In this document: positions 35,472 to 64,000 of the stretch, in pieces | Numbering within the stretch: position 1 is the first letter of the stretch | How the letters are laid out: each line of letters starts with the position of its first letter | From: Sphaerosporella brunnea | Lineage: Eukaryota; Ascomycota; Pezizomycetes; Pezizales; Pyronemataceae | Assembly (NCBI GenBank): GCA_008704415.1 | Contig: VXIS01000247.1 | Coordinates: forward strand, 1-64,000 | Direction: 5' to 3' | DNA: 64,000 nucleotides | The notes under the pieces: generated by a model | What the model was told of the DNA's origin: nothing | Database searches by the model: none | The model's input: only the letters and a program-made list of their open reading frames with translations | Program-made: the position numbers and the translations under genes

Positions 35472-35575
35472 ATAAAAATGACAAAAAAAAAATAAACGCA
35501 TAAACACGGTATCGGTATCAAGCGCATTCCCAAACACCAAACGCCAATCCCCCTCTTTGTCTACTGATCCGATCC

Positions 35576-41790: not shown

Positions 41791-41796
41791 CAAGCG

Positions 41797-42640: not shown

Positions 42641-42836
42641 CTACGAGAGGTAGCAATCACCTCTACCTTACTGTGTTCCCCATCATCACTGTCCAGGGTT
42701 TCCGCTTGATGGTTTGTAGTTGCAGCTGTTCTTGGATATTCGAAGCTCCACCCTTGATATCGGCAAGGTTACCGTTCGGCAAACGCCGCGCAGACCCGGA
42801 AGACATGCTGTCCTCCGGTACCCCAACTTTCAGCGT

Positions 42837-44051
42837 CTAGGCACCGCACTGGCGGCGCTTCGAAGCGCCCCCAGTAGCGGCCTCACGCTTCCGCTTCCGC
42901 CGCTCCGCGTCCTCCGCCCTCTTCCTCTCTGCTGCCTCCAACACACTCTTCCGCTTCTGGACCTCCTCGAGCTCGGCCTTGATCTCCAAAATCTTGGCGT
43001 CCCTCTGCTCCACCATCGCCTCTAGCTTATCCCGGTCCTGCACAAACGCGGCCAGTTTCTCCGTGTAGTCCTCGTCATTTATATAATTCAAGAGCGAGTG
43101 GTCCAGATGGTCTCGGTGTGCGCGCAACACTCTGTTTTGCTCCTCGCAAGCTTTCAGCTCTTGTTGACGCGCCCATTCCGTGTCTGCCTGCGCCCTCCGC
43201 ATCTTATCCTCCGCGTCGTACAATGTCTGTTTGGCGTGTTCCAGGCTCTCGTTCAATGAATTTTTGGCGTCTGCCAGGCTGGTTGCCTCGTTTTTCATGG
43301 TACCAGCGGCGGCCTCCATCTGATTGCTGGCTGGGGCCATAACCTGATTGCTGCTGTTTACAGCCTGCCGGTTCCGATTTACATCCTCCCGAATTTCATC
43401 GACGGCGGTCTTTGTGTCATTTACAGTGGCCAGGACTTCCGCGATCTGCTTCATCATTTCCAGCATCTCCTCGCGGGTCACAAGGACCGGGGCTGGGGGG
43501 GGGGGGCAGCTGCTGCATTGGGGCGACGTCGGCATCGGGAGGGAGCAGCGCATCGAAGAGTCCGTTATCGTCAGGGCCATCGTTAACGTCGGGCAAAGCA
43601 ACGTCCTCGTTGTCTAGGCCGTCCTCGTTGTATTGTTCCGCAGCCGCAGCCCTGCGCATGGCTTTGGGCAAAATAAAGGCCACGTTCTCACCCAGCGGCG
43701 CAGGGGAATCGGCAGTGGGCCAGGTCTTCAGCCACTTGGCCTTTGACTGCAGTGATGCCTTCAACAGCCCGTTCAGGAACCCGTACAGAGTCCTGTACCC
43801 TTCTTCTTGTCCGCATAGTAGGCTCTCCCTTTCTTCACAATCGCCTTCACATGGATGGTGATGGCTCGCTAATTATTTTTGCTGGAAAAGGTAACAGGAC
43901 ACTCTTCCACAGGGCACCGGTCAATGCCCACAGTTTCCTTGTGGCCACCTGGGACGATTGGGCGAACAACAGGCTGGGGGTTGATGGTGGGTGCAGTAGC
44001 TCGCTTGCCGGCACGCTTGCTGGCGCGCTTCCTCGATTTATTGACCGCCAT
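42837..44051 (-). pseudogene. Coiled-coil protein gene with frame break at a C/G run
   Basis: The 3' part (43490 to stop 42837) encodes about 210 residues of near-continuous coiled coil, rich in Glu, Ala, Lys and Arg, ending in a basic nuclear-signal-like tail (RKRKREAA, SKRRQ). The upstream part, around 43764-43510, is a good acidic frame (EDVALPDVNDGPDDN...PMQQLPPPP) that enters a run of about 13 C (minus strand) and leaves in the other frame. A basic N-terminal piece MAVNKSRKRASKR starts at 44051 and also needs an intron or a frame change near 43870. Either the gene is decayed or homopolymer errors disturb it. A nuclear structural or DNA-associated role is possible. No family recognised. 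Confidence 0.5.
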
Positions 44052-45931
44052 GATTTCTGTGGACAGGAACTTGAAATTAGCCCTGCTATTCTAAAGACCG
44101 GGCTGTAAAAGTGTTGCCGTACAAGCAATAGCGGCGGCGTTGGAGAGGTGTGGGTGGGCAGTGTTGCTCGCCATACTGGCGGGCGGCGTGGTGGTGGTGG
44201 TGGTGGTTGTAGTTACTACTATAGTGGTAGTAGCGACGGTGGACATGGTGGAGGATGTGGCGGCAGCGGCGGTGGGGGGTGGGGGTGGATTGACCTGAAC
44301 CCAAGTCAGTATCGAGAAAACGAGGGATCGAAGCTGTCACGACTACCTTAACTCCCCAAACAGACAAACGCCCTTGTTCCACTCGGTACTCGATTCCATC
44401 CCTTGCCCAGAGCGGCCACAGGCTGAATCCAAACAGCGCATCGTATGGGAAATGGAAAGAGGAGTTGATGCCCATTAGATTAAGAAGCGCCAGGAGACGG
44501 TCGGTAGGCTCTGGGAAGCCTTGGTTGTGCCAGCCGTCCGAGAGTGCATGACCTCAGCCTGTCCGAACACCTCGGAAGCCTTGGCAATGAGCTTGTGCGC
44601 AATTGAGTCTTGTTCTTCTGGGGGTTGGACTTTGAAAACGGAGACCAGTAAAGCGACAGTCAGCAGAGGGAGATTGATGTCGATCCAATCCAATAGGTGT
44701 GGCGTCCGATGCGAGAAGGCGCATGGGCGTGAGAGAAACACATCGCTGTACGCTGATTATTGGGGTAGTTCGTCCATCAATCCCAAACATTTCCAGGACA
44801 ATCAGAGTATCCTAGGGGTATACCAGGTTGTGGTCCGGTGCATACACGGTTGTCGTTTCACATCCTGCATCCTTGAGAACGTTCTTGGCCAGAACTGCCC
44901 GGAAATCATTCGGTTCCAGCGTCGGGCAAGTTTTCAAAGAGAACATGGTCCCTGTGCAGGTTTCATTTTTAAGCATCTTCCTGATTTGTGATCTCAACCA
45001 ATGTTGTCAGTGCCAGCCGGCCCGGGCTCGGGGTTCCTGCCACTGGCACCTCCGAAGCTTGAGAGCCTTGAGTGTTTGCGCTTCCATCAGACTCCGATTG
45101 AATGGTTATAGGCGAGTAGGGAGACATGGAAACGTAGGATTTGCAGCCGAACAACAATGGCCCGGGTGCTTTTCATTGAGGCTTCACTGCCGATCACTCA
45201 TGAATGCAGCAGTGTAGTAAATTCATGTACAGAGTCTTTGAGGTCTCTACTAGAATTGTGATGTTGCGATGCCGTCTGGCCAGCTGGTATGGCGACTAAT
45301 ACTTTTGGTAACAACCTCATCTCAGCAAAAGAAAAACTGCTTTGAAGCTTCCGACGCGGATGTCTTCCCTCGCATCCTTCAATTGAACGGCTAAGTGGGC
45401 TGCCCAACCTATGGTAACCCTAAAACTAAGGTGGTTACCGAATAGTCCCTAAGTAACGAGTTGTGGTTTTTAAAAGTCAGAGAGCGTTCGGAAAGACAAC
45501 AATATGACATCTAAGTTCAAGCAACCATGGTTTTTAGCTTTCTGCCTCCCCTGAAATTTCCGTGGTTTTGTCTCCCAGTGAGGCTTTACCAGTGAAAAAA
45601 CTGCCGAACTCTCCTGCAAAGTCTGTATTGGGGCCAAAACCATGGTCTCGTCGCCGAACTGGCCCTTATGTATATATCTGGAATACTGGACCGGAATGAA
45701 GAAACGGGTACATATGCATATGCTCTTTGCAGCCGGACACCAAACCGTTATAATCTCCACGCACCAGAACCAACTCAAGAACACCCATTTAACCACTAAT
45801 CAACACAAACGGGTCCAACCAATGTAATTTCCACAATAGGTATTCTTGATCCTCGTCCACCTGTGGATTCGGACTGGGTCAGCGACGTTATATGGCGGTG
45901 AATGATAGTCGAATGCGCTCACCTCTCTAAA
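44052..45931. other. Intergenic, possible relics
   Basis: A minus-strand stretch at about 44475-44700 looks protein-like (SIAHKLIAKASEVFGQ) but stops quickly and has no recognised family. CCA/GGT-rich simple sequence lies at about 44188-44290. No supported gene. Confidence 0.4.
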
Positions 45932-47996
45932 TCACCAATGCCCGCCAGCTCCATGACGGGGAAGGTGGCTCTCCCAGCGGGGAATTTCAACGTCGCTGTG
46001 CCTTCGCGGTCGCCACTCAGGTGGCTGAAGGTTGGGGCCTGGAGTTGCTGAAACATAAACCACAGAAGGGGCCTCATTGTCGGATACTGCTCTCGATTTC
46101 GGTCGGTTGAATGCCGGTGAAACTGAGGCCCATCGTGTTTTTTGAATCTCGGCTTCTCCCTTCCTAGAACCCCCCCAGTTATCGCCACACCACACCTCCG
46201 CGGCCCCGAATTCCGCGGTCTCTGATTCCCCAGGAGGGCTGGGGTTCCAGCGACGGCCTCTTCCTCCAGTTGCGGTTGCAGCAGCAGTATCAGTGTCGAA
46301 CGGTGGCCATTCAACCGTGGTTTCTTTCTCCTCTACCCATTCTTGCCATGCTTGCACGACTTTTGGCTCCAGTGCGCGAATTTCCTCAAGGCCTAGGGAG
46401 AACCGCAGGTTTTGAAATCTTGCTATCGCTCGCTGCTTAGCACGATATAAGGATGAGCCTAGGTCAGAGGGATTCGTTTCATCGATATCTCTCCACCACG
46501 CTGTCTGGGTGCTAGGACGCGTTCTCTCACGCGTCTTTTGGCTCTGTTGATCTTTTTGTCTTAGTAGCTGCCACTCTTGGTCCTTTGCCTGCAATTTTTC
46601 CTGCCATATCTGTATTTCAGCGTTTTTGGCTTTCTCTGTTAGGTAATCGGCGACCGTGTAGTCACCTCTGACCCTCCTACGGTTGTACCCGGAATCGAAA
46701 CTGGGTTCGTGGTCAGGACTTGTGGATACTTGGCCCTTTACAGAATTGATGGAATCGGGGGTCCCCTTCCGTGGCCGGACGGAGGCTCTCCGCCGTGGCG
46801 GAGCGGGATAGGGATCTGGGGCATCTCCATCATAGCAGCGGATAGAATCTTCAGAATAACGCGAGCTTGTATCATCGAAATCTGCCTCATCGTCGTCCTC
46901 GACCTGAGGCCGGCGGTAATTGGTTCCAGGCAGATGATCTGAGGAAGTATTAGAGACGAAGAAGCTCTGGGCATGGCCATGAGAGTGCGGTGATTGTGGT
47001 GGTGGTGGTGGTGGTGGTGGTGGTGGTGGTGGTGGTGGTGGTGGTGGTGGTTTGATAACAGGATATTGGCCAGCATAGTTGTAAGTGCTCGAGCTCCGTT
47101 CCGCGCTCCTAGGTCGTTCGAATGCTGAATAATTTTCCGACCGTGGTCTATATCCGCTATGGCTATAAGCGGAAGGGTATCGTGAGGGATCCTGTGTCAC
47201 AGCCACAGCGTTCGAGTCTGGTCCATCCCTCCACAAAACCAAAGCACCGATGAACTCCCGACTATCCTGCAGGTCTTCCTTCGAAATTCCATCATAGTCA
47301 TAGTCGTCTCCCAAAACATCGATGATTTCGTCGACCTTTTCATCGATATCCGCCTTCTCCCAAGGAAATGCGTTCGTGTGGTGAGACGCGAGAATAATTG
47401 CCGCTTCTGTGCACCGTGGTGCATCTTTGGACTTTTTGATCTCGTCGAAAAGTGCATCGATCTTGGCTTCTATTCTTGCGAGAGTTTCGAGTTTCCGCTC
47501 AATGCGCGATAATGAGGAGCTATCAATTCATTCCGCCGCCATTAGTAAATCGCGAAAATGGTCACGCAGCAGGGATTCGGACTTACTTCCCTACGCCGGC
47601 AAGATAAACTGTGATGCTATTCAGATGCATCGAAAGTTTATGGCGAATCGCGCCCGCATTCTCTTTCACATACTTTATCCTCGTCCACGAGACCTTCTGC
47701 TTGGCGCCATTCTCGAGCTTGGTGTACTTCGCCTTGAGCTCGTCCAGCTCCACCAGCACTTCATTGCAGCGACCGACCACGTCTATCAAACCCTGTCTTT
47801 GGGCCCGGCCGCATCGAGAAATTATCGACGTCGGATCGTCTGCATCCTGGTGGAGCTGGTCGAGTGTCGTGTGCAATGTGAGTAGTTCCCGACAGAGCTC
47901 TCGGAAATCGCTCGGGCCGTCTTTGTAAGATAGATAGAGTTTCAATGCTAGCGAACCGACGGCCAGGAAGTCGCCCACTGAAAACCCGAAGCTCAT
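45932..47996 (-). CDS. Fungal signalling-type protein with polyproline tract
   Basis: Two exons, 47996-47587 and 47519-45932, join across a 67-nt intron (GTAAGT donor) to 665 residues without a stop. Residues 1-135 (starting MSFGFSVGDFLAVGSLALKLY) match the helical N-terminal domain found on many fungal NACHT/STAND-type and related proteins. Residues 137-170 form a helix (SRIERKLETLARIEAKIDALF). A disordered centre contains about 18 consecutive prolines and many Ser/Arg/Tyr. A helical stretch follows near KAKNAEIQIWQEKLQAKD, then an Arg/Pro-rich tail. No ATPase domain is present, so it may be an adaptor-like protein. The function is unknown. Confidence 0.78.
46997..47050. repeat. GGT trinucleotide microsatellite
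   Basis: About 18 uninterrupted GGT units on the plus strand, encoding a polyproline run on the minus strand within the 45932-47996 gene. Length is likely variable. Confidence 0.95.
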
Positions 47997-49334
47997 GATA
48001 GGCGATGGCGAGACCCGGAGTCTATGTAGCGGTCTGTATCTCAGAGCTATCTAGATTCGAGAGTGGGGAAGCGTTGATATTAGCCTGAGTATTCTACGCT
48101 GCACAGCCTCATCGACATCATGCATGTTTGCCAGCCCAACAATTTTGCGCAGTGCATGCATGCACAATGGCCATGGCCAATTAGAGGCCTCGTACGCTTG
48201 GGTAAGTACTCTAGTACATCGCGCAACCGTACAAATACGCATCTCTGGCCAAGGCCAACTCCAGTGGCGCAGCGACGCACCACCATCCTATGTAGAGAGT
48301 CCTTCACGTAACGTCATCGCAATGCCTCAATTACACTCGCAAATACATCAAGTCGGTTGCTCACTACTGGGATGCCAGGAAAGAGTCTGCAGCTAAGATA
48401 CTCTATCGGTACATAAGGTCGAGTGCCTATTCCCTCCGTTATGACGTCGACCTGATACAACGGCTGATCAGCCAGCATTTTATTCCGCTTAGTATCGTAT
48501 TCCGTTAGAGGGCGGGCCGGGAGTCTCCTGTATCGTACATACCCTTCCTAGGTAAGCCCGGGCTTGCCTAAGCTGTCCACGGCTGTGTCTCTCATACAAA
48601 CTTCACTGGCCTACCTAGGCTCGTGGGGACCGACCGAAGCTGTGGGTGGGCTATCAGGAGGTTGGGAGGCTGCGCGGGAGCTGTTGGGAGGCGGGAAAGG
48701 GTGAGACGCCGCCGAAAGAACACACCTCGGAGGGGCTGTTAGGAGATGCGACGCTGCTGGAGGGACGATGGAATATGAGGGGGCGCCAGTAGGGGAGCGG
48801 AATGTGCCATAGACATTGCACCCTTTGCTGCAGCCAGTGCCGAAGTTCTTCAAATGAAACTGAAACTAACGATACGAAATGCAACGTTGATGGGAGAGTT
48901 TCGATGTGAGCAGAAATATAAACTCCAACCCACCACACCGACCGAGCGACTTCGTGTCTAGACAGTTGCAGGCGCCGGGAAAAGGCCGCGGAGGACACGG
49001 CGACGGGATGCCGACCGGTCGGGCGGCCGGAGATCCGTGAGATCCCAAGGGAACGCGGTGGTGGCCAGCAGAACCCGAGAAGGCAATTTGCCTACATATC
49101 GTGCGCCACCAGCTAGGACCGCCCGACGAGGCTATGCCGCATGCACCCGAGTTCTACCGTACTCAATGTGGCGACAACTGAGCGACGGCCGGAGACTGTA
49201 CGGCACCATCCGAGCCTCCCACGTGGCGTATGTGATCTGACAGTGTGGAACCTGAGCGGCTGCGCCGGTAGGTAGCGGTGGATGGACCCTGACGCCGACG
49301 GGAGCCATGGGACTTCTGTCCTAAGAGGCCCACG
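47997..49334. other. Intergenic, no gene recognised
   Basis: No supported gene. The stretch leads into the LINE 3' fragment, and part of 49000-49334 may be further decayed LINE sequence. Confidence 0.45.
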
Positions 49335-49553
49335 CAGACGCGTGACCACCTCTTCAAGACCTGCCATAAATGGCGCGAAGAGCACCGAACGCTGTGGAAG
49401 GCAGTGGCGGAGGCCACGCGTGAGAAAGGGAAAAAGAGGAGGAAAACGAACACGTCAGTAAAAGATTTGCTGGCGGATGGCCGCTGTACAGGAGCAGTGA
49501 TGGATTTCCTGAGCAGCACGCACGTGGGGACATGGCCAAAGGCGGCCGACTGA
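49335..49553 (+). mobile_element. 3' end of a Tad-like LINE reverse transcriptase
   Basis: Seventy-two codons before a TGA show the C-terminal signature of fungal Tad-clade LINE polyproteins: TRDHLFKTCHKW (His-Cys motif), LWKAV, DLLADGRC, AVMDFL and STHVG. Upstream RT sequence is not recognisable in frame. The left arm of the giant inverted repeat overlaps this fragment. Confidence 0.7.
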
Positions 49554-50540
49554 GTCTGGACTGTGTGCTCTTTTTCTTTCTGCTTTCTGCTTTCTATATC
49601 ACGAATTTCCTTTGTGTAATGAGTCCGGCTGCGCTTTCCTAGCTTCCCTTTCCTTCGGAGGAGCGTACCCCAGAGTAGGCTTCGGCGCCTAGGGGTGGCG
49701 ATGATTCTGTATCTACATGCCATGGCCGCAAGCGGCCAAATGCAATATGATTAAAACAAAACAAACCTATGGAGTACTTGATTATAAATCCCATGCCTCA
49801 GATCCCTCCTATTTGCTGTCCTGCTCGCGTTCCGGCCGCTTCTTTTTCCTGCTCTTGATTGTTGTGGATGTCTTCCGAGTCATGGAGCTAGAGGAGCTCG
49901 AGGTGACGTTGGGTCCGCCGGGCGGCATTGCACGACTGGGGGAGGTTATTGCTGTTGATTAGATGGTGCATTGGATGTAGAACTTACCAGTATAACCATA
50001 TTGTGGTCAAGAGCTGTTCGGAACTGTTAGTTAGGTTTTGGCCTCCTAGAAAATAACCAACTCCCGGGCCGGTTACCATTAGTTAACTAAGTACGTAGTT
50101 CCGCAGCCGGACATATCAGAGCATCTGAGGCGAGAGGGTCAGAGAGAAAACAAGTGGGAGAAGGCTGGTACTTCGTTATTTCAGCCGACGACGGACTTCC
50201 GCTGCGCATGGCACGCTAACTCGAAACCAAGTTACATGCTATTGTGTACTTGGCATAACAACATCATAGCGTTTGGTAGTTGAGCGAATAGCAGAGATTT
50301 TGAGAGCTCGAGAGTTTGAAGGTAGCGGTAGTCCGACAGAAGAGAATGTCCATCAATTCAGCGCAAGGTTTCAAAAGAACTGATGACGTGTCTTTGCCTT
50401 GATGTGATTTCAAAGCAGCTCTCCTACCGGAAACATATAAAGCCAGGCGGTAACCGTACGTACAGCTCCAGAATTCCAGAAGCGACAGAAGATACTACCC
50501 ACGCAAAGACCGACTACGGATTCGAACAAACAGCGTCAAC

Positions 50541-51769
50541 ATGTCAATTCCTCGCACCTATAAAGCGTTTCGCCGCAGCAGTGGCGATTTACCGAGGACC
50601 CTTGAGCTGGTCACCGAGGAGCTCCCATCGTCGCTCCATCCCCACGAGGTCCTGATCCGCATCCATGCTGTTTCCCTCAACTACAGAGATGTTGCTATGC
50701 TGCATGGGAAGTATGCTGTGGATGTGAAGGAGAGCGGCATTCCTGCATCTGACTGCGCTGCGGAAGTTATCGCGGTTGGATCTGAGGTCAAGGACTTCGC
50801 AGTGGGGGATCGTGTTGCGCCTATCTTCGACTTGAATAATTTGACGGCAACCGAGGATGAAATGGCAGCTTTGGGCGGTGACGTTGACGGCGTGTTGCGG
50901 CAGTTTGCGGTGTTTGACCAAAAGGTGTTGGTTCATTTGCCAACGCACCTTTCGTGGGAAGAGGTATGTATCCACTCTGTCATGATATCTAGTCAGGTAC
51001 TGATTCCTAAAAGGCCGCATGCATCACCTGTGCTGGAGCCACCGCATGGACCGCTCTCGACATGCCAGAGTCAACTGACAAAGGCCGTGTTGCATTGCTT
51101 CAAGGTGAATCTCTTTTTTTTTTCCCACGGTGACTTGGTTCTCGGGGATGCTAATACCTCAGTAATCAGGCACCGGCGGAGTGAGCATGTTTGCGTTGTT
51201 GATCTGCCTGGCGGCTGGCATTCGTCCCATTATCACGTCTTCCTCCGATCAGAAACTTGACATTGCGCGCTCCCTGGGTGAGCCGGGAGCTGTGGATGTC
51301 ATCAATTACAGAACCCACCCGAAATGGGAGGAAGAGGCCTTACGCCTCACGAACGGACGTGGCGTCGATATCGTGCTGGAGAATGTTGGAGCCACTACTA
51401 TAGCCCAGAGTATCGCCTCCCTGGCTCGCAGAGGTACGGCGTCTTTGGTCGGCTTTCTTGGAGGACTTAACCCGGAGAACCCCCCTAACACTGTTCACCT
51501 TTTGTTGGCCAAAACTGCAATGATGAAGTTCGCCCCAAACCCTGTCCCTGAGCCTTGCACTGAATGTAAAATGCTAACGTGACACTCGCCTTAGGGGGAT
51601 TGCGGGGGGCTCAAAAATCGACCAGCAGAACTTGTGCCGTTTCCTTGCCGAGAAGAAGGTTCAACTGCAGCCAATCTTGGATGAAGTCTTCGCCTTTGAA
51701 GACTCGAATGCTGCCTTCGATCATCTATATGCCGCCAAGCATATGGGCAAGGTTATCATCAAAATGTGA
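50541..51769 (+). CDS. Zinc-type alcohol dehydrogenase / quinone oxidoreductase-like (MDR)
   Basis: Four exons (50541-50963, 51014-51104, 51170-51527, 51595-51769) give 348 residues. The N-terminal GroES-like domain has HPHEVLIRIHAVSLNYRD and GDRVAPIF. The Rossmann part has LLQGTGGVSMFA, ITSSSDQKLDIARSLG, ADVINYRT-like sequence, GVDIVLENVG and GKVIIKM at the end. The catalytic-zinc cysteine is absent and the sequence resembles zinc-free NADP-dependent quinone oxidoreductases. The protein should reduce a small carbonyl or quinone with NAD(P)H; the substrate is unknown. The last intron has a GTTCGC donor and a good GCTAAC branch point. An identical copy lies in the right arm. Confidence 0.9.
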
Positions 51770-52538
51770 AGTTTTGCAATATTATCAGATCACTGTTTAT
51801 TGTTTGTGCCTCATGGTTTGAAGTTTATCATAAAGGCCCTTTGTTCCGTGCTAATATAATCGACCGTCTAGGAGCAACGGCACTAAGGGATTCGTTGATG
51901 TTTTGCACGACGGGGGATAACACCGTGTTAAGGCTTTAAATGTTTACCAGTCTACTCTCCTTTGCTCAGGTCTTTGTTTACCAGTTTTCGCTCTTCCTAA
52001 AGGAATTATATACGTGTACTTAGTAGATACATAGTGAAAGTTTACTAATCTGCGCGCACCAAAATTGCTGCCTAAACAGACAGGGCAGAGTAATTGACCT
52101 TGGCCGTGATTCCCGATTGAGTTGGTTTCTCTGAAGATCCTTGCTGACAACGCCCACTGACTAACACTGCTGACTAACATCCCGGTTACGCTTTGGGATT
52201 CTCAAAACCTCTCGCACCCGGCCAGGGTGAGAAAAGGATGGCTATGCTTCGTTCATAATCCCAATATCATTAGAGTAGCACTATTATTTTTCGTTCCACT
52301 GCATCACATACATCGCGATATCGTTCTAGTGGTAGGTAAGTATGTGCAAAGAAAACCCGCCCCGTGGCTTCCTCAAGCGTTTCCTCTCCCCAAATTCAAC
52401 TTTCGGCCCCCTTTCGCACGTTACTGTCTCCCTGGAACACTAAGCTACTATATATCTCCCAGCGCCTTCGCGCGGCCGTGTGTTTTTGGAACCGCTGTAA
52501 TGTCCCGACTCGAGGCAAATTGTGGAGCCAGGGAACGC
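51770..52538. other. Intergenic spacer between convergent genes
   Basis: AT-rich spacer between the MDR gene and the end of the minus-strand PLC-like gene. No gene recognised. Confidence 0.6.
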
Positions 52539-53728
52539 CTAAACGCTTCCGATGTTGAACGTGCCCATCCAGCTTCCAGCGCCGATGATGAACAGCGATT
52601 TCTTGACGGTCTGCCCACTCTTTACCTGCGCCGCAAGCCTCCGTATCTGTGCCATCCCGCCGTTCTTGTAGATGTTTTTGTTGGACGAGAATGCGTCTTT
52701 GGGATTGGGAGGAAATGCTTCGCGATTCTCGGGGTTGGTGACGTTGTTGTGGGCATCGACGATGTCCATAGGGGTGCCCTAGACCCTTATCGTCAGTATA
52801 ATATTACGGTAAACGAAGGTGCAGCCACATCACGTACCACGTTTACAAAATCCAACAGCGCGAACCCGCCCTGTCTCCCCCACTGCTGACTGCACTGAGC
52901 AACGCCATCCTTCAGATTCCCGACCCCGCTGTTTCCGTTCAGGGCCGCCGCATAGGTCGAATTCGGAACATAGAGCTTCAGCGTCGTCGAGATCTGGTCG
53001 TACAAAAACCGGTTCATGAACCCCATCCTCCCGCTCGCCACCGCTGTGCTGAGCTTGTCCTTCCCGGCGACCGCACTCGGCCGTGTGGCGTAGCAGGTGT
53101 AATTCGCCGGATCCGACACCTCAAAGTCGGTCTCAAAGATGTAGTTCCACTCCGGCAGGAGGTAGGGCACCTTGGACGTATCCGCCGCATTCGACAAAAA
53201 TGCGACAACCTGCTTCTTCTTATCGATCATGGCCTGCAGTGTCGGCCAGCCGGTGCCGTCGGGTACGTATGCCAGCGTATCCAACCCCGCAGCTGTAAAG
53301 ATCCCGCCAATGGTCTCTGCCGAGATCTTGTCGTCGTTTACCAGCAGGATCGTCACCACCTCGCTCGGCCGCGTTGACAGCCAGGTATTGATCCCGCTCA
53401 ACCAGTCTTTCAGCAACCCCCCGTCGAGGATGTCGCACGTCGTGTGGCACAGCTTTACCGAGCCGTTGTCGACGTGCAGTTGTGATTGTAGGAGACGCAC
53501 ACCGGCGCTCAGAGCCACTGTGGCGTTGAAATATTGGTTCCCACCCTCGGACCACCCGTTTGCGGCCGTCCGCACGAAGGCAACATTGTGGGCTCCCAGG
53601 TGCAGGATGTCGCTGTAGGTGGCGTTGCAGAGAGAGGGGGAGTTGTTGCAGGCGGTTTTGTTGTAGGCTGCGGAGAGCGGGAGGAGGAGGGCCGAGAGCA
53701 AGGCTGTGGCAGCGGGGAGGAGACGCAT
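52539..53728 (-). CDS. Secreted PLC-like phosphodiesterase, left-arm intact copy
   Basis: Two exons, 53728-52838 and 52778-52539, joined by a 59-nt intron (GTACGT...CTAG), give 376 residues. Residues 1-20 form a signal peptide. The PI-PLC-X-like TIM-barrel fold is suggested by LGAHNVAFV (first catalytic His, residue 47) and KLCHTTCDILDGG (second His, residue 95), with LSTRPSEVVTILLVND and IFETDFEV following. Several N-x-S/T sites fit secretion. Fungal members probably cleave phosphodiesters outside the cell; the substrate is not established. An upstream in-frame ATG at 53842 would add 38 residues and hide the signal peptide, so I prefer 53728. The right-arm copy is frameshifted. Confidence 0.9.
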
Positions 53729-53872
53729 CGTTGAGGTAGAGCTTCTATTCTCAATGCCGAAGCCGCTGTTTGTTTTACCGATGGGGAGAAGTGGATGGAA
53801 GAGGGGGTGTGTGTCTTTCTTTGAAAAGCTCTGATCTTCCATGCAGATGTTGATACCCTGAAATGGGCTCAC

Positions 53873-54663
53873 TCAGCTCAGCCCCACCCCCTCCCAAGAC
53901 TTTTCGAAACTGCTGCTCGTGCTCTGTGTGATTCGTCTATCTCAGCCTGACCTGACGTGTGTGGCATGCGTGCAGCTATTAATAGGGCTGGAAATCTGCA
54001 AGGCTCCAGGCTGAATGCAATGCAGACGAGTGAGGGTGTTTGGTTTGGTGCCAATGAATGTCTGGAGGTGTTTGGTATTTTGAGGCCAAAGAGACGATTT
54101 CTGTCCAGGTCGGGCAAGTGCTGCCGCGTACGCGTAACACCTTCAGCTTCCATGGCACCGGCCGGCGTTTCAACGAGCCAATCTTTGTTAGGTGCATTTT
54201 TACGTCGGCTGATCTCGTGCGGCTCATGGGAAGACTTGGCTCGACCACTGTGGCTGTGATAAGCGCTTCAAGCGCGCTTCTACTAGACGATTTTTTATGT
54301 ATCCGGATGGCCCAGAAACCCTAACCGCTTAGAGGGCTATGAAGAAAAGGATTCAGACGCCCAGAGGTTCCAAGCGGATTTCAACCGTTAAGTATATGAA
54401 GCTGGCTTGACGGGACGAGTTGTGGGATATGATCATGATCGAGGAACTCAATACCGAGATTGCCAATGCTCCCGACGATGATGCAGCGGCGGGCGGTGCT
54501 TCAACGTCAACGGTGGAAATAGGCAATCATGCCTGAGCTCGGGTTCCTCTTTCTTGTTTTTCCTTATACCTACATACTTACTATTTTTTTCAGCTTTTTT
54601 TTTTTTTTTTTTTTTCCTTCGTGACCTGTATGTCATTGCGCAGCTTTTGGTTTTTTTTTTTTT
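53873..54663. other. Intergenic with long T-tracts
   Basis: Promoter side of the PLC-like gene. T-runs at about 54594-54615 and 54651-54663 are much shorter in the right-arm copy. No gene recognised. Confidence 0.55.
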
Positions 54664-55703
54664 ACGGCTATTATGCAGGATACCCTTCGAGAGGGGCGTA
54701 TTTTGTGGATTGACCCTACGAATTTCTTATTATGCAGCATACCCCCCACTAAAATTATGTGGGTTTTTTTTAAGCGAGCAATGGCTTGACCGAGTGATAC
54801 ACCATGATTCGGAGCGCGCGCGCCAGCAAACACAACACCGCACCTTTACCGCCTCCCACCACACAGCTGTTTTCGCGCGTCGCGTCTTTTCGGTTCCTGC
54901 TGGACTGCCTGCTGCCTGCTAGTACTCATGGATCTCATCAATGAACCCATTGGTGTAGGTGCTGCAGAGGCCGCAGCGGAGAAGCCCATTGAACCGCCTG
55001 CTCCGCCGCTCGCTTCCCCGCTCGCACTGGTTGTTGGCCAGCAATTTGATACCTTTCAAGACTTCAAAGCGGCGCTTAGCAAATGAGCTGTTTCTCAACG
55101 CTTTGGGTTCCGGTTTGAAAAATCAGATAAACTGCGAAATGTTGTTCGTTGTATGGTGCAGGCAGCTATAAACCTGGTCGTCACACGGATATTTTCGTCG
55201 GAAAATAAGCAGCACGCAAGTGCAGAAACAGTGAAATGGAAAACATTGGGTTGTAGAGCGCATCTGCCTTAGGTGCTTAACGCTTGTTTTGCTCTGAGTT
55301 GGGACGTGGGGATACCGGCATTGATTGTGGTCGTCCATCTCCGACGACCAGGTTTATAGCTGCCTGCACCATAGCGATTCTAAGGACTGCAAATTCAACG
55401 TCAAAGCAATGTGGAAACAAAATCTGGAAAAGGTTAGCGATATCGGAACCTTCAATAAACTAGATCTGGACTGATGATGGTGATTCAAGAGAGACAATGA
55501 GTTCGTTGCGGTGTTTGCTGGCGCGCGCTTCGAACCATAGTGTATCACTCGGTCAAGCCATAGGGAGCGCGTGAAAAATCTGGATGGTGCTCGCTTAAAA
55601 AAACCCCACATAATTTTAGTAGGGAGTATGCTGCATAATAAGAAATTTGTAGGGTCAATCCACAAAATGCGCCCCTCGCGGGGGGTATCCTGCATAATTA
55701 CCG
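54664..55703. mobile_element. Mutator-like element with long TIRs and transposase remnant (left arm)
   Basis: About 1040 bases. The ends are inverted repeats of 170-195 bases starting ACGGCTATTATGCAGGATACCC, with one 27-base indel. Inside, from ATG 54928, is a short plus-strand frame: a Pro/Ala-rich lead, then GQQFDTFQDFKAALSK, a stop where Trp is expected, and continued similarity in the same frame (FGFRFEKSDKLRNVVRC). That is the pattern of the N-terminal DNA-binding region of MULE/FAR1-type transposases. The catalytic part is deleted, and an internal inverted repeat surrounds 55154-55372. Both ends abut T-runs, so a target duplication cannot be read. Confidence 0.75.
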
Positions 55704-56502
55704 TTTTTTTTAAAAGCCCGCCCCCCGTATTTGTTGGTGAACAACGGAGTGATTTCGCGTGGGTTCTCTAAGCGCCGGGGCCTGGGTTAGGATTTCCAGG
55801 GCATCCAGATACTCAAAAAACCGTCGAGTATTGATACCGCCGCTGCCGGTTCCCTAAAACCAACGGCAATCAACCATCAAGGAAGAAGGAAGTTGTATTT
55901 AATATATTTCCACATGCAGAAAATGCGACACCGCAGGTAGAGTTTCTCAAAAAGTTAAAGCACCTTTATCTATCCTACGGCCTTCCATTTTTTATCTCAG
56001 CAGGTAAAAGTCTACCGAACAAAAAGGCTGCAGTCCACTGTTTGGCTCTCACAATATCACATTCTGGTATCCAGCTTTTGGGATCCACAGTGGCTAAGCA
56101 CTCCAGCAAGTAAAATCTGTGGAGGCTTGGCATCTTCGAAAACATTCGAGTGATGTCGTGTGCACGGACCCCGCAGGAAGACAACACAGGTGCCCGCAGC
56201 AAGGCGGCCCATACTCAGGATTCAGCGGCAAGTTGAAGAAGCCCTCCCCGCGCAAGCCCGGCGCAAACTCAAGAGGGGCCAACGGCAAGAGCAATCGCGC
56301 CGGCGAGACACCGCCTTCAGTTCAGGCTAGATAAAACATGTCGCAGGGTTCAAACATCGGCTTGCAACGCCTTTGTTCGCTCCCCCCAACCTGCCGTGGT
56401 GATGGATGATACCACTAAAGATGCGGAGGAAGAGGAAGAGGATCTCGATGGAGATTCGGAGGAATACTGTGATTCCGATTTTTTGAGAGCAACGGTGCGT
56501 CT
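55704..56502. other. Intergenic, weak frames
   Basis: Short Lys/Ser/Pro-rich frames only, for example plus strand 56119-56334. No family recognised. Confidence 0.4.
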
Positions 56503-56679
56503 GAGGATAGGTTTAAATGGAACTTCCTGGTTTCGAATGGGTTCGTTGCCGGGGCTGAAGATGGGGATGAAGATTCTGAGGAAGACGACAATTCTGAGGA
56601 AGATAATGATCTCGTGAAAGACAATGATCTTGCGCAACTAGAGGAAAACAACGATCCTGAGGGAGATGAGTATAAATAA
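56503..56679 (+). pseudogene. Acidic C-terminal ORF fragment
   Basis: Fifty-eight codons ending at TAA 56677, starting EDRFKWNFLVSNGFV and followed by a very acidic tail (DGDEDSEEDDNSEEDND). No start codon or upstream exon is evident. It looks like the 3' end of a lost gene, cut at the edge of the palindrome spacer. A mirror copy lies at about 56858-57027, without the last codons. Confidence 0.35.
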
Positions 56680-56857
56680 AAAATTTAATAAAAAACATCA
56701 AAAATAAAATAATTATAATGAAACAATAAATAATAAATAGTAATTTTAAAATGAATAAATAAATAAAAAATTATAATTTAAAATTGAAAAATATAAAAAC
56801 TAAAAGATAATTATTACTATAAATGATATATATATACATTAAAATCAACTAAAATTT
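56673..56857. other. AT-rich spacer at palindrome centre
   Basis: 185 bases, almost all A and T, with no inverted symmetry. It separates the two arms. AT-rich unpaired centres occur in natural fold-back duplications, but a junction of this type can also arise in chimeric assemblies. Confidence 0.9.
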
Positions 56858-57826
56858 TACTCATCTCCCTCAGGATCGTTGTTTTCCTCTAGTTGCGCAA
56901 GATCATTGTCTTTCACGAGATCATTATCTTCCTCAGAATTGTCGTCTTCCTCAGAATCTTCATCCCCATCTTCAGCCCCGGCAACGAACCCATTCGAAAC
57001 CAGGAAGTTCCATTTAAACCTATCCTCAGACGCACCGTTGCTCTCAAAAAATCGGAATCACAGTATTCCTCCGAATCTCCATCGAGATCCTCTTCCTCTT
57101 CCTCCGCATCTTTAGTGGTATCATCCATCACCACGGCAGGTTGGGGGGAGCGAACAAAGGCGTTGCAAGCCGATGTTTGAACCCTGCGACATGTTTTATC
57201 TAGCCTGAACTGAAGGCGGTGTCTCGCCGGCGCGATTGCTCTTGCCGTTGGCCCCTCTTGAGTTTGCGCCGGGCTTGCGCGGGGAGGGCTTCTTCAACTT
57301 GCCGCTGAATCCTGAGTATGGGCCGCCTTGCTGCGGGCACCTGTGTTGTCTTCCTGCGGGGTCCGTGCACACGACATCACTCGAATGTTTTCGAAGATGC
57401 CAAGCCTCCACAGATTTTACTTGCTGGAGTGCTTAGCCACTGTGGATCCCAAAAGCTGGATACCAGAATGTGATATTGTGAGAGCCAAACAGTGGACTGC
57501 AGCCTTTTTGTTCGGTAGACTTTTACCTGCTGAGATAAAAAATGGAAGGCCGTAGGATAGATAAAGGTGCTTTAACTTTTTGAGAAACTCTACCTGCGGT
57601 GTCGCATTTTCTGCATGTGGAAATATATTAAATACAACTTCCTTCTTCCTTGATGGTTGATTGCCGTTGGTTTTAGGGAACCGGCAGCGGCGGTATCAAT
57701 ACTCGACGGTTTTTTGAGTATCTGGATGCCCTGGAAATCCTAACCCAGGCCCCGGCGCTTAGAGAACCCACGCGAAATCACTCCGTTGTTCACCAACAAA
57801 TACGGGGGGCGGGCTTTTAAAAAAAA

Positions 57827-58866
57827 CGGTAATTATGCAGGATACCCCCCGCGAGGGGCGCATTTTGTGGATTGACCCTACAAATTTCTTATTATGCAGC
57901 ATACTCCCTACTAAAATTATGTGGGGTTTTTTTAAGCGAGCACCATCCAGATTTTTCACGCGCTCCCTATGGCTTGACCGAGTGATACACTATGGTTCGA
58001 AGCGCGCGCCAGCAAACACCGCAACGAACTCATTGTCTCTCTTGAATCACCATCATCAGTCCAGATCTAGTTTATTGAAGGTTCCGATATCGCTAACCTT
58101 TTCCAGATTTTGTTTCCACATTGCTTTGACGTTGAATTTGCAGTCCTTAGAATCGCTATGGTGCAGGCAGCTATAAACCTGGTCGTCGGAGATGGACGAC
58201 CACAATCAATGCCGGTATCCCCACGTCCCAACTCAGAGCAAAACAAGCGTTAAGCACCTAAGGCAGATGCGCTCTACAACCCAATGTTTTCCATTTCACT
58301 GTTTCTGCACTTGCGTGCTGCTTATTTTCCGACGAAAATATCCGTGTGACGACCAGGTTTATAGCTGCCTGCACCATACAACGAACAACATTTCGCAGTT
58401 TATCTGATTTTTCAAACCGGAACCCAAAGCGTTGAGAAACAGCTCATTTGCTAAGCGCCGCTTTGAAGTCTTGAAAGGTATCAAATTGCTGGCCAACAAC
58501 CAGTGCGAGCGGGGAAGCGAGCGGCGGAGCAGGCGGTTCAATGGGCTTCTCCGCTGCGGCCTCTGCAGCACCTACACCAATGGGTTCATTGATGAGATCC
58601 ATGAGTACTAGCAGGCAGCAGGCAGTCCAGCAGGAACCGAAAAGACGCGACGCGCGAAAACAGCTGTGTGGTGGGAGGCGGTAAAGGTGCGGTGTTGTGT
58701 TTGCTGGCGCGCGCGCTCCGAATCATGGTGTATCACTCGGTCAAGCCATTGCTCGCTTAAAAAAAACCCACATAATTTTAGTGGGGGGTATGCTGCATAA
58801 TAAGAAATTCGTAGGGTCAATCCACAAAATACGCCCCTCTCGAAGGGTATCCTGCATAATAGCCGT
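57827..58866. mobile_element. Mutator-like element, right-arm copy
   Basis: Mirror image of 54664-55703, with the same transposase remnant, internal stop and internal inverted repeat. The adjacent poly-A run is lost in this copy. Confidence 0.75.
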
Positions 58867-59772
58867 ACCAAAAGCTGCGCAATGACATACAGGTCACGAA
58901 GGAAAAGCTGAAAAAAATAGTAAGTATGTAGGTATAAGGAAAAACAAGAAAGAGGAACCCGAGCTCAGGCATGATTGCCTATTTCCACCGTTGACGTTGA
59001 AGCACCGCCCGCCGCTGCATCATCGTCGGGAGCATTGGCAATCTCGGTATTGAGTTCCTCGATCATGATCATATCCCACAACTCGTCCCGTCAAGCCAGC
59101 TTCATATACTTAACGGTTGAAATCCGCTTGGAACCTCTGGGCGTCTGAATCCTTTTCTTCATAGCCCTCTAAGCGGTTAGGGTTTCTGGGCCATCCGGAT
59201 ACATAAAAAATCGTCTAGTAGAAGCGCGCTTGAAGCGCTTATCACAGCCACAGTGGTCGAGCCAAGTCTTCCCATGAGCCGCACGAGATCAGCCGACGTA
59301 AAAATGCACCTAACAAAGATTGGCTCGTTGAAACGCCGGCCGGTGCCATGGAAGCTGAAGGTGTTACGCGTACGCGGCAGCACTTGCCCGACCTGGACAG
59401 AAATCGTCTCTTTGGCCTCAAAATACCAAACACCTCCAGACATTCATTGGCACCAAACCAAACACCCTCACTCGTCTGCATTGCATTCAGCCTGGAGCCT
59501 TGCAGATTTCCAGCCCTATTAATAGCTGCACGCATGCCACACACGTCAGGTCAGGCTGAGATAGACGAATCACACAGAGCACGAGCAGCAGTTTCGAAAA
59601 GTCTTGGGAGGGGGTGGGGCTGAGCTGAGTGAGCCCATTTCAGGGTATCAACATCTGCATGGAAGATCAGAGCTTTTCAAAGAAAGACACACACCCCCTC
59701 TTCCATCCACTTCTCCCCATCGGTAAAACAAACAGCGGCTTCGGCATTGAGAATAGAAGCTCTACCTCAACG
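58867..59772. other. Intergenic, mirror of 53729-54663
   Basis: Same spacer as in the left arm, 29 bases shorter through the loss of homopolymer T/A. Holds the promoter side of the right-arm PLC-like copy. Confidence 0.6.
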
Positions 59773-60965
59773 ATGCGTCTCCTCCCCGCTGCCACAGCCT
59801 TGCTCTCGGCCCTCCTCCTCCCGCTCTCCGCAGCCTACAACAAAACCGCCTGCAACAACTCCCCCTCTCTCTGCAACGCCACCTACAGCGACATCCTGCA
59901 CCTGGGAGCCCACAATGTTGCCTTCGTGCGGACGGCCGCAAACGGGTGGTCCGAGGGTGGGAACCAATATTTCAACGCCACAGTGGCTCTGAGCGCCGGT
60001 GTGCGTCTCCTACAATCACAACTGCACGTCCGACAACGGCTCGGTAAAGCTGTGCCACACGACGTGCGACATCCTCGACGGGGGGTTGCTGAAAGACTGG
60101 TTGAGCGGGATCAATACCTGGCTGTCAACGCGGCCGAGCGAGGTGGTGACGATCCTGCTGGTAAACGACGACAAGATCTCGGCAGGAGACCATTGGCGGG
60201 ATCTTTACAGCTGCGGGGTTGGATACGCTGGCATACGTACCCCGACGGCACCGGCTGGCCGACACTGCAGGCCATGATCGATAAGAAGAAGCAGGTTGTC
60301 GCATTTTTGTCGAATGCGGCGGATACGTCCAAGGTGCCCTACCTCCTGCCGGAGTGGAACTACATCTTTGAGACCGACTTTGAGGTGTCGGATCCGGCGA
60401 ATTACACCTGCTACGCCACACGGCCGAGTGCGGTCGCCGGGAAGGACAAGCTCAGCACAGCGGTGGCGAGCGGGAGGATGGGGTTCATGAACCGGTTTTT
60501 GTACGACCAGATCTCGACGACGCTGAAGCTCTATGTTCCGAATTCGACCTATGCGGCGGCCTGAACGGAAACAGCGGGGTCGGGAATCTGAAGGATGGCG
60601 TTGCTCAGTGCAGTCAGCAGTGGGGGAGACAGGGCGGGTTTCGCGCTGTTGGATTTTGTAAACGTGGTACGTGATGTGGCTGCACCTTCGTTTACCGTAA
60701 TATTATACTGACGATAAGGGTCTAGGGCACCCCTATGGACATCGTCGATGCCCACAACAACGTCACCAACCCCGAGAATCGCGAAGCATTTCCTCCCAAT
60801 CCCAAAGACGCATTCTCGTCCAACAAAAACATCTACAAGAACGGCGGGATGGCACAGATACGGAGGCTTGCGGCGCAGGTAAAGAGTGGGCAGACCGTCA
60901 AGAAATCGCTGTTCATCATCGGCGCTGGAAGCTGGATGGGCACGTTCAACATCGGAAGCGTTTAG
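59773..60965 (+). pseudogene. PLC-like phosphodiesterase, frameshifted right-arm copy
   Basis: Mirror copy of the 52539-53728 gene with the same start, signal peptide, intron and stop. It carries five single-base indels, all at short runs of the same base: an extra C near 60029, an extra G near 60186, an extra C near 60241, a missing C near 60560 and an extra T near 60641. As read, the first breaks the frame before the second catalytic His, so no full protein results. Such a pattern is typical of uncorrected long-read consensus and need not be biological. Confidence 0.85.
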
Positions 60966-61734
60966 GCGTTCCCTGGCTCCACAATTTGCCTCGAGTCGGG
61001 ACATTACAGCGGTTCCAAAAACACACGGCCGCGCGAAGGCGCTGGGAGATATATAGTAGCTTAGTGTTCCAGGGAGACAGTAACGTGCGAAAGGGGGCCG
61101 AAAGTTGAATTTGGGGAGAGGAAACGCTTGAGGAAGCCACGGGGCGGGTTTTCTTTGCACATACTTACCTACCACTAGAACGATATCGCGATGTATGTGA
61201 TGCAGTGGAACGAAAAATAATAGTGCTACTCTAATGATATTGGGATTATGAACGAAGCATAGCCATCCTTTTCTCACCCTGGCCGGGTGCGAGAGGTTTT
61301 GAGAATCCCAAAGCGTAACCGGGATGTTAGTCAGCAGTGTTAGTCAGTGGGCGTTGTCAGCAAGGATCTTCAGAGAAACCAACTCAATCGGGAATCACGG
61401 CCAAGGTCAATTACTCTGCCCTGTCTGTTTAGGCAGCAATTTTGGTGCGCGCAGATTAGTAAACTTTCACTATGTATCTACTAAGTACACGTATATAATT
61501 CCTTTAGGAAGAGCGAAAACTGGTAAACAAAGACCTGAGCAAAGGAGAGTAGACTGGTAAACATTTAAAGCCTTAACACGGTGTTATCCCCCGTCGTGCA
61601 AAACATCAACGAATCCCTTAGTGCCGTTGCTCCTAGACGGTCGATTATATTAGCACGGAACAAAGGGCCTTTATGATAAACTTCAAACCATGAGGCACAA
61701 ACAATAAACAGTGATCTGATAATATTGCAAAACT
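60966..61734. other. Intergenic, mirror of 51770-52538
   Basis: Spacer between the right-arm PLC-like and MDR copies. Nothing else seen. Confidence 0.6.
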
Positions 61735-62963
61735 TCACATTTTGATGATAACCTTGCCCATATGCTTGGCGGCATATAGATGATCGAAGGCAGCATTCGA
61801 GTCTTCAAAGGCGAAGACTTCATCCAAGATTGGCTGCAGTTGAACCTTCTTCTCGGCAAGGAAACGGCACAAGTTCTGCTGGTCGATTTTTGAGCCCCCC
61901 GCAATCCCCCTAAGGCGAGTGTCACGTTAGCATTTTACATTCAGTGCAAGGCTCAGGGACAGGGTTTGGGGCGAACTTCATCATTGCAGTTTTGGCCAAC
62001 AAAAGGTGAACAGTGTTAGGGGGGTTCTCCGGGTTAAGTCCTCCAAGAAAGCCGACCAAAGACGCCGTACCTCTGCGAGCCAGGGAGGCGATACTCTGGG
62101 CTATAGTAGTGGCTCCAACATTCTCCAGCACGATATCGACGCCACGTCCGTTCGTGAGGCGTAAGGCCTCTTCCTCCCATTTCGGGTGGGTTCTGTAATT
62201 GATGACATCCACAGCTCCCGGCTCACCCAGGGAGCGCGCAATGTCAAGTTTCTGATCGGAGGAAGACGTGATAATGGGACGAATGCCAGCCGCCAGGCAG
62301 ATCAACAACGCAAACATGCTCACTCCGCCGGTGCCTGATTACTGAGGTATTAGCATCCCCGAGAACCAAGTCACCGTGGGAAAAAAAAAAGAGATTCACC
62401 TTGAAGCAATGCAACACGGCCTTTGTCAGTTGACTCTGGCATGTCGAGAGCGGTCCATGCGGTGGCTCCAGCACAGGTGATGCATGCGGCCTTTTAGGAA
62501 TCAGTACCTGACTAGATATCATGACAGAGTGGATACATACCTCTTCCCACGAAAGGTGCGTTGGCAAATGAACCAACACCTTTTGGTCAAACACCGCAAA
62601 CTGCCGCAACACGCCGTCAACGTCACCGCCCAAAGCTGCCATTTCATCCTCGGTTGCCGTCAAATTATTCAAGTCGAAGATAGGCGCAACACGATCCCCC
62701 ACTGCGAAGTCCTTGACCTCAGATCCAACCGCGATAACTTCCGCAGCGCAGTCAGATGCAGGAATGCCGCTCTCCTTCACATCCACAGCATACTTCCCAT
62801 GCAGCATAGCAACATCTCTGTAGTTGAGGGAAACAGCATGGATGCGGATCAGGACCTCGTGGGGATGGAGCGACGATGGGAGCTCCTCGGTGACCAGCTC
62901 AAGGGTCCTCGGTAAATCGCCACTGCTGCGGCGAAACGCTTTATAGGTGCGAGGAATTGACAT
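61735..62963 (-). CDS. Zinc-type alcohol dehydrogenase-like (MDR), right-arm copy
   Basis: Exons 62963-62541, 62490-62400, 62334-61977 and 61909-61735. All exons and splice sites match the left-arm gene at 50541-51769 and no coding difference was seen, so a 348-residue protein is predicted. The same reaction is inferred (NAD(P)H-dependent reduction of a quinone or carbonyl). If the palindrome is real, the locus carries two intact copies; if it is a fold-back artefact, there is one. Confidence 0.88.
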
Positions 62964-63950
62964 GTTGACGCTGTTTGTTCGAATCCGTAGTCGGTCTTTG
63001 CGTGGGTAGTATCTTCTGTCGCTTCTGGAATTCTGGAGCTGTACGTACGGTTACCGCCTGGCTTTATATGTTTCCGGTAGGAGAGCTGCTTTGAAATCAC
63101 ATCAAGGCAAAGACACGTCATCAGTTCTTTTGAAACCTTGCGCTGAATTGATGGACATTCTCTTCTGTCGGACTACCGCTACCTTCAAACTCTCGAGCTC
63201 TCAAAATCTCTGCTATTCGCTCAACTACCAAACGCTATGATGTTGTTATGCCAAGTACACAATAGCATGTAACTTGGTTTCGAGTTAGCGTGCCATGCGC
63301 AGCGGAAGTCCGTCGTCGGCTGAAATAACGAAGTACCAGCCTTCTCCCACTTGTTTTCTCTCTGACCCTCTCGCCTCAGATGCTCTGATATGTCCGGCTG
63401 CGGAACTACGTACTTAGTTAACTAATGGTAACCGGCCCGGGAGTTGGTTATTTTCTAGGAGGCCAAAACCTAACTAACAGTTCCGAACAGCTCTTGACCA
63501 CAATATGGTTATACTGGTAAGTTCTACATCCAATGCACCATCTAATCAACAGCAATAACCTCCCCCAGTCGTGCAATGCCGCCCGGCGGACCCAACGTCA
63601 CCTCGAGCTCCTCTAGCTCCATGACTCGGAAGACATCCACAACAATCAAGAGCAGGAAAAAGAAGCGGCCGGAACGCGAGCAGGACAGCAAATAGGAGGG
63701 ATCTGAGGCATGGGATTTATAATCAAGTACTCCATAGGTTTGTTTTGTTTTAATCATATTGCATTTGGCCGCTTGCGGCCATGGCATGTAGATACAGAAT
63801 CATCGCCACCCCTAGGCGCCGAAGCCTACTCTGGGGTACGCTCCTCCGAAGGAAAGGGAAGCTAGGAAAGCGCAGCCGGACTCATTACACAAAGGAAATT
63901 CGTGATATAGAAAGCAGAAAGCAGAAAGAAAAAGAGCACACAGTCCAGAC

Positions 63951-64000
63951 TCAGTCGGCCGCCTTTGGCCATGTCCCCACGTGCGTGCTGCTCAGGAAAT
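63951..64000 (-). mobile_element. LINE 3' end, right-arm copy (cut by window edge)
   Basis: The last 50 bases are the reverse complement of the end of the LINE fragment at 49335-49553. The palindrome therefore includes this transposon end and extends past the window. Confidence 0.7.

What the first reader, a model, noticed from the sequence alone, without database searches (positions are those of the whole stretch)
49504..64000. Seven-kilobase near-perfect palindrome with AT-rich centre at the window edge
Two arms of about 7.15 kb mirror each other around a 185-bp AT-rich spacer and carry the same two genes and two transposon remnants. The pairing is unbroken up to the last base. Such a structure could be a recent inverted duplication (breakage-fusion or fold-back replication) or an assembly fold-back. 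Unmutated duplicates this long would also imply that repeat-induced point mutation is inactive here.
Basis: partly seen in the sequence, partly recalled or inferred. Interest (0 to 1): 0.85.

Follow-up and report, generated by a model that had tools for sequence, protein, structure and literature searches.

The report
Long-read fold-back assembly artefact
The huge mirror-image stretch at the end of this fungal contig is most likely a sequencing and assembly error, in which one stretch of DNA was read forwards and then backwards, and not a real genome structure.

Summary
The palindrome is in the sequence, but it is larger than described and most likely not in the organism. The window is bases 1-64000 of a 74,840-bp contig (C165) of a 50.6-Mb, 640-contig fungal assembly. 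The mirror image runs to the last base of that contig: inner arm 38656-56672, spacer 56673-56857 (92% AT), outer arm 56858-74840. There is no right flank. The ~18-kb arms differ at 10 places, all indels, no substitution. Five are single-base runs, each shorter in the outer arm; five are one-base indels that break a phospholipase-C-like gene in the outer arm, while the inner copy keeps its main frame. The fault recurs: of 24 other contig ends probed, 4 (C225, C30, C1, C180) have an inverted copy on the same contig. Three fit a simple fold-back; C180 is more complex. C135 folds back internally. Beside the folds of C1 and C135, and in the inner mirror of C180, the copies differ by 3-8%, mostly indels, like uncorrected long reads. 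Best reading: a fold-back long read kept at a contig end. It says nothing about repeat-induced point mutation.

The parts
38656..56672 (+). Inner arm of the palindrome (18,017 bp); taken as the authentic locus
   Evidence: Self-alignment of the whole contig and arm-to-arm alignment; the PLC-like gene keeps its main frame here
56673..56857 (.). Spacer, 185 bp, 171 of 185 bases A or T; no other match in the assembly
   Evidence: next most AT-rich 185-bp stretch of the contig outside the centre is 69% AT
56858..64000 (-). Outer arm as far as the window reaches; continues to the end of the contig at C165:74840 (17,983 bp in all); probably the return pass of a fold-back read
60031..60641 (.). Patch of five one-base indels in the outer arm relative to the inner arm (mirror of 52862-53470), one loss and four gains
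52793..53872 (-). Open frame of a PLC-like phosphodiesterase gene, inner-arm copy (359 codons stop to stop)
59629..60702 (+). Same gene, outer-arm copy, frame broken by the five indels
50454..51582 (+). Alcohol dehydrogenase / quinone reductase-type gene, inner-arm copy, two overlapping frames
   Evidence: Pfam ADH_N and ADH_zinc_N
54664..55704 (.). Transposon remnant with 170-194-bp inverted ends (79% alike), holding a nested 222-bp element at 55152-55373; mirrored in the outer arm at 57826-58866

Best explanation
C165 ends in a fold-back artefact. One long read, or a few, ran along the true locus (38656 to about 56672), turned at or near the spacer and came back along the complementary strand. 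Library preparation (self-ligation or hairpin priming), a missed hairpin adapter or amplification chimerism can all do this. The assembler kept the return pass as new sequence, so the contig gained about 18 kb of mirror image and stopped where that read stopped. Correction with reads from the single true locus made both arms almost identical and left indel errors, seen as broken frames only in the outer arm. Shown: the geometry, the indel-only differences, the intact versus broken gene, and recurrence of the fault in the same assembly. Inferred: that no second copy exists in the cell, the read-level mechanism, and the platform.
For: (1) The mirror image ends exactly at the contig end and no right flank exists. 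(2) 10 of 10 differences between the arms are indels, 0 substitutions over about 18 kb; all 5 homopolymer differences are shorter in the outer arm (by 3, 3, 2, 17, 12), net 34 bp. (3) The 5 one-base indels lie in one gene and break it only in the outer arm: three homologues match the inner copy at 64, 60 and 49% in one main frame, the outer copy at 44, 45 and 38% with extra pieces in other frames. (4) Recurrence: 4 of 24 other contig ends probed (a non-random, capped probe) have an inverted copy on the same contig; C225, C30 and C1 fit a simple fold-back from the end, C180 a more complex one. C135 folds back internally around a 226-bp spacer, with arms only 91.6% alike. (5) Beside the fold of C1 the arms carry 3 mismatches against 24 gap letters in 654 columns, in C135 26 against 44 in 830, in the inner mirror of C180 3 against 11 in 505: mostly indels, as in uncorrected long reads (that comparison is recalled). 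(6) C1 also has an A-rich spacer (38 A in 69 bases). (7) Fold-back reads are documented: about 0.55-0.6% of ONT genomic reads (PMC12870357, Results read); PacBio palindromes through amplification or missed adapters (PMC6218980).
Against: No reads or coverage were available, so the second copy is not shown to be absent. The outer arm is 99.8% identical, so it was corrected by many reads. C30's arms do differ by a mismatch (2 counted in a self-alignment that sees each difference twice), and C135 has 26 mismatches, so 'indels only' is not general. In C225 one of the two arm differences read is a base more in the terminal arm, so terminal copies are not always shorter. C180 does not behave as one simple palindrome: pieces where the large mirror should continue (12000-12400 against 36400-37300) did not match. 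Real inverted duplications also give poor second arms in nanopore reads (PMC7229812, Results read), so one-sided indel errors alone do not prove an artefact. PMC12870357 saw no systematic fold-backs in three PacBio samples. The extreme AT spacer is not explained: the C135 spacer is only 43% AT.
Confidence: 0.93

Rival explanations
1. A real, very recent inverted duplication (breakage-fusion, fold-back replication or ODIRA type), with the assembly stopping inside the second arm.
For: Arms are nearly identical and longer than many reads, so an assembler could stop inside the second arm; a short non-mirrored spacer is what fold-back replication leaves (recalled). One-sided poor quality can occur in nanopore reads of real inverted duplications (PMC7229812).
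Against: 0 substitutions against 10 indels; frameshifts only in the outer arm; mirror ends with the contig; no other contig carries the single-copy parts searched (35000-42000, 49000-56600) or the spacer, among the scored candidates; fold-backs at several other contig ends.
Confidence: 0.04
2. A closed hairpin chromosome end: one strand runs into the other, so a read through the end gives a palindrome.
For: The fold points found at contig starts lie near contig ends, and reads through a sealed end would be symmetric (inference).
Against: 4 of 24 probed ends (3 simple) extrapolates to some 160-210 of 1,280 contig ends, far more than a fungus has chromosome ends (rough; small, non-random sample). 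Spacers range from 0 (C30) to 226 bp (C135) and share no evident sequence. C30's fold lies beside an LTR of a dispersed element.
Confidence: 0.01
3. Within the artefact reading: the fold-backs come from whole-genome amplification chimeras, not from ligation or a missed adapter. (The confidence is a share within the artefact reading, not in competition with it.)
For: In amplified DNA 11.8-47.8% of PacBio reads held palindromes against 0.5% in an unamplified control (PMC6218980, Table 1). Frequent folds and a contig with two mirror relations (C180) would fit.
Against: The library method is not known to me. Arms of 18 kb are long for amplification products (recalled).
Confidence: 0.3

Closest known systems
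Fold-back artefact reads in long-read data (Heinz, Meyerson and Li 2026, PMC12870357; abstract, Results and Discussion read)
   Same: Second half maps to the same place on the opposite strand; symmetric; sequence between the halves is absent or can be up to about 2 kb and is enriched in simple repeats, with homopolymer A among the most frequent.
   Different: Described in reads, not in a finished contig; their three PacBio samples showed no systematic fold-backs.
Palindromic chimeras of PacBio reads after whole-genome amplification, and missed SMRTbell adapters (Pacasus paper, PMC6218980; abstract, Background and first part of Results read)
   Same: Inverted copies of one locus in one long read that harm assembly; several folds per read possible, as C180 suggests.
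   Different: Whether this genome was amplified is unknown.
Nanopore reading of real inverted duplications (Spealman, Burrell and Gresham 2020, PMC7229812; abstract and Results read)
   Same: The second arm is read with missed bases and comes out shorter, as the outer arm here (net 34 bp).
   Different: There the duplications were real and known from short reads; here no independent support for a duplication exists.
Origin-dependent inverted-repeat amplification and other real fold-back duplications (as described in PMC7229812; otherwise recalled)
   Same: Inverted copies with a short junction between them.
   Different: ODIRA gives a triplication with unique flanks on both sides; here the contig ends inside the second copy.

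Membership tests
Long-read fold-back artefact | Second arm is the reverse complement of the first around a short or no spacer | tested here: met
   18-kb arms, 185-bp spacer
Long-read fold-back artefact | No sequence beyond the second arm (arm ends with the read or contig) | tested here: met
   Outer arm ends at C165:74840, the last base
Long-read fold-back artefact | Arms differ by sequencing-type errors, not by substitutions | tested here: met
   10 indels, 0 substitutions; frame broken in the outer arm only
Long-read fold-back artefact | The fault recurs elsewhere in the same data | tested here: met
   4 of 24 probed contig ends, 3 of them simple, plus C135
Long-read fold-back artefact | Other reads pass the fold point without folding; single-copy depth | not testable with these tools
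   No reads held
Genuine inverted duplication | Unique sequence on both sides of the duplicated arms | tested here: not met
   Left flank present, right flank absent in the assembly
Genuine inverted duplication | Divergence, if any, includes substitutions | tested here: not met
   0 substitutions against 10 indels; a duplication too young for substitutions would also show none, so this alone is not decisive
Genuine inverted duplication | Doubled read depth and independent junction reads | not testable with these tools
   No reads held
Closed hairpin chromosome end | Fold points no more numerous than chromosome ends | tested here: inconclusive
   4 of 24 probed ends extrapolates to some 160-210, too many, but the sample is small and not random

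The most novel reading that the evidence does not exclude
The fungus really carries many recent, large terminal inverted duplications or sealed hairpin ends formed by fold-back of broken chromosome ends, of which C165 is one, and the indel differences are consensus errors laid over true duplicates.
Probability: 0.03. Interest if true: 0.75.

Novelty: not a real feature. Interest (0 to 1): 0.07.

Why it matters
Mainly as a warning. Gene counts, duplication claims and RIP inferences from this assembly are unsafe near contig ends, and the broken outer-arm copy of the PLC-like gene is already listed in a protein collection as a 301-aa prediction from a 74,840-bp contig (P0001). If the structure were real it would be a striking case of chromosome-end fold-back in a fungus.

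Tried and rejected
Real inverted duplication: rejected as less likely (indels only, one-sided frameshifts, no right flank, recurrence). Hairpin chromosome ends: rejected as too frequent, on a small sample. Second copy of the spacer elsewhere, to learn where the true locus continues: none found, so the true continuation beyond 56672 is unknown. Mitochondrial origin of the spacer: no hit in the assembly, not tested otherwise. Whether the AT-rich spacer is native sequence or poor base calling at the turn: not decided; its compressed length equals that of shuffled sequence, and of the other spacers one is A-rich (C1) and one is 43% AT (C135). Two paper searches gave nothing I used. Pfam gave no family for 4 of the 7 frames scanned, the PLC-like one among them; that gene was named from its homologues.

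Limits of the control. The contig-end probe was not random. I fetched both ends of 10 contigs whose lengths were already listed (20 ends) and probed 12, dropping 8 by eye or because two of them matched each other. I fetched 17 further contig starts and probed 12, dropping 5. Each search scored only 40 candidates: of 137, 319 and 46, and repeats filled part of each list, so fold-backs could have been missed. Nine of the 12 starts were; C30, C120 and C150 were searched only. 4 of 24 is therefore a rough lower bound for those ends. For C225, C1 and C180 only pieces of the arms were read. The searches for other carriers of the arms covered 35000-42000 and 49000-56600 (each with 40 candidates scored of 230, 950 and 303); 42001-48999 was not searched.

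Full report
What is there. The window is C165:1-64000 of an unnamed 50.6-Mb, 640-contig assembly, and C165 is 74,840 bp long. Inside the window the inverted match 49504-64000 is as reported. With the rest of the contig added it becomes 38656-74840 against itself: an 18,017-bp inner arm (38656-56672), a 185-bp spacer and a 17,983-bp outer arm that ends with the contig. The 7.15-kb arm length was an effect of the window edge.

Organism. The closest named relatives of the PLC-like protein are from Wilcoxina mikolae (64%) and Pyronema domesticum (60%), below three unnamed ones of 64-73%. So this is probably a member of the Pezizomycetes (inference from one protein).

Differences between the arms. 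There are 10, all indels. Five are single-base runs that are shorter in the outer arm by 3, 3, 2, 17 and 12 bases. Five are one-base indels at outer-arm positions 60031-60641, one a loss and four gains in the outer arm. All five lie in the PLC-like gene. Three homologues match the inner copy at 64, 60 and 49% in one main frame, with a short last piece in a second frame; they match the outer copy at 44, 45 and 38% in that main frame with larger pieces in two other frames. So the inner copy is the authentic one. A duplicated locus that had aged would be expected to show substitutions; the arm-to-arm alignment shows none.

Flanks and spacer. Searches with 35000-42000, 49000-54600 and 54000-56600 listed no other contig carrying the single-copy parts, only dispersed repeats (40 candidates scored each; 42001-48999 not searched). 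The spacer with 33 bp of each arm matched only C165. It is 92% AT in a contig averaging 47% AT, where the next most AT-rich 185-bp stretch away from the centre is 69% AT. Its compressed length is that of shuffled sequence.

Control in the same assembly. I probed 24 other contig ends (selection and caps in Tried and rejected). Four had an inverted copy on the same contig, checked by alignment. C225: the pieces read fit arms of about 11.1 kb around a spacer of about 20 bp. Its terminal 1.5 kb has 0 mismatches and one run of T that is 2 against 18, shorter in the terminal arm; nearer the fold one run is a base longer in the terminal arm. C30: a palindrome of 3,520 bp with no spacer whose arms differ at three places, one a mismatch, and which overlaps an LTR of a dispersed element. 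C1: arms of about 9.5 kb. The terminal 1.5 kb has 0 mismatches and 4 gaps, but beside the fold the arms are 95.9% alike with 3 mismatches and 20 gap openings, around a 69-bp A-rich spacer. C180: the terminal 1.4 kb is mirrored at 47600-49041 with 0 mismatches and 4 gap openings, and a second mirror (20000-20500 against 23607-23110) has 3 mismatches and 10 gap openings. However, pieces where the first mirror should continue (12000-12400 against 36400-37300) did not match, so C180 is not one simple palindrome. In addition, C135 folds back internally: 13659-14471 mirrors 14698-15500 around a 226-bp spacer at 91.6%, with 26 mismatches and 44 gap letters in 830 columns, and the start of C2 matches its cleaner side at 99.4% with no mismatch. 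Other redundancy: the last 548 bases of C109 equal C445 over 548 of 548, and C495:2044-4000 equals C66 over 1,957 of 1,957 bases.

Interpretation. Mirror arms at contig ends, differences that are indels or mostly indels, and patches with 3-8% error near some folds are what fold-back reads produce. Such reads are described for ONT genomic libraries (about 0.55-0.6% of reads; PMC12870357, Results and Discussion read), for amplified DNA, and for missed SMRTbell adapters in PacBio libraries (PMC6218980, Background and part of Results read). The same ONT/PacBio survey saw no systematic fold-backs in three PacBio samples, so the platform matters and is not known here. Pairs of an identical 80-bp LTR probe about 7.3 kb apart lie inside C325, C235, C44 and C40, which argues that long reads were used (inference). 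The ~18-kb outer arm would then be the length of the return pass.

A result that cuts both ways. Real inverted duplications are also read badly by nanopores, with a shortened second arm (PMC7229812, Results read). The one-sided indels alone therefore do not separate artefact from duplication; the recurrence at other contig ends and the absence of a right flank carry the verdict.

Repeat-induced point mutation. The palindrome cannot be used to judge it. Other weak data: an 80-bp LTR probe from C30 matched exactly at 18 listed places outside C30, the two LTR edges sampled on C325 agree over 291 of 291 bases, and six copies of the 450-bp repeat at 49315-49766 differ from it with transitions to transversions of 4:1, 19:7, 17:11, 15:7, 22:9 and 25:8, only a mild transition excess. 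In Pyronema confluens a rid homologue exists but only 0.46% of the genome looked mutated by RIP (PMC3778014, passages read). This suggests little recent RIP, independently of the palindrome, but it is not a proper test.

Limits. No reads were available. The verdict rests on evidence inside the assembly; a real duplication or a sealed end is left about 5%.

Noticed in passing
G000: C1:1-19017, C30:1-3520, C225:1-22299, C180:1-49041, C135:13659-15500: Further inverted self-copies at contig starts, and one inside C135, in the same assembly; C180 holds two different mirror relations.
   Followed up: partly
G000: C495:2044-4000 and C66:45460-47416; C109:88900-89447 and C445:327839-328386: Stretches of separate contigs that are identical over 1,957 of 1,957 and 548 of 548 bases, so the assembly holds redundant or misjoined contig ends.
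   Followed up: partly
window 55152-55373, inside 54664-55704: A 222-bp element with 31-bp inverted ends, with 35 further listed places in the genome at 91-99% identity, nested in a rarer element with 170-194-bp inverted ends.
   Followed up: no
window 49315-49766 and 41436-41813: Two other dispersed repeats with copies on more than 25 contigs each, at 74-99% and 83-95% identity.
   Followed up: partly
G000: C325:24029-31432, also C235, C44, C40: A young LTR-type element: an 80-bp LTR probe is exactly repeated about 7.3 kb apart on four contigs, and the sampled edges on C325 are identical over 291 bases. Observed only.
   Followed up: partly
window 38182-38499: Copies of a stretch with about 30-bp tandem repeats, shared with C66, C495 and C481, lie just outside the point (38656) where the outer arm stops.
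   Followed up: no
P0001: A 301-aa protein listed from a 74,840-bp contig carries the frameshifted residues of the outer-arm copy, so the artefact is in a protein collection.
   Followed up: yes
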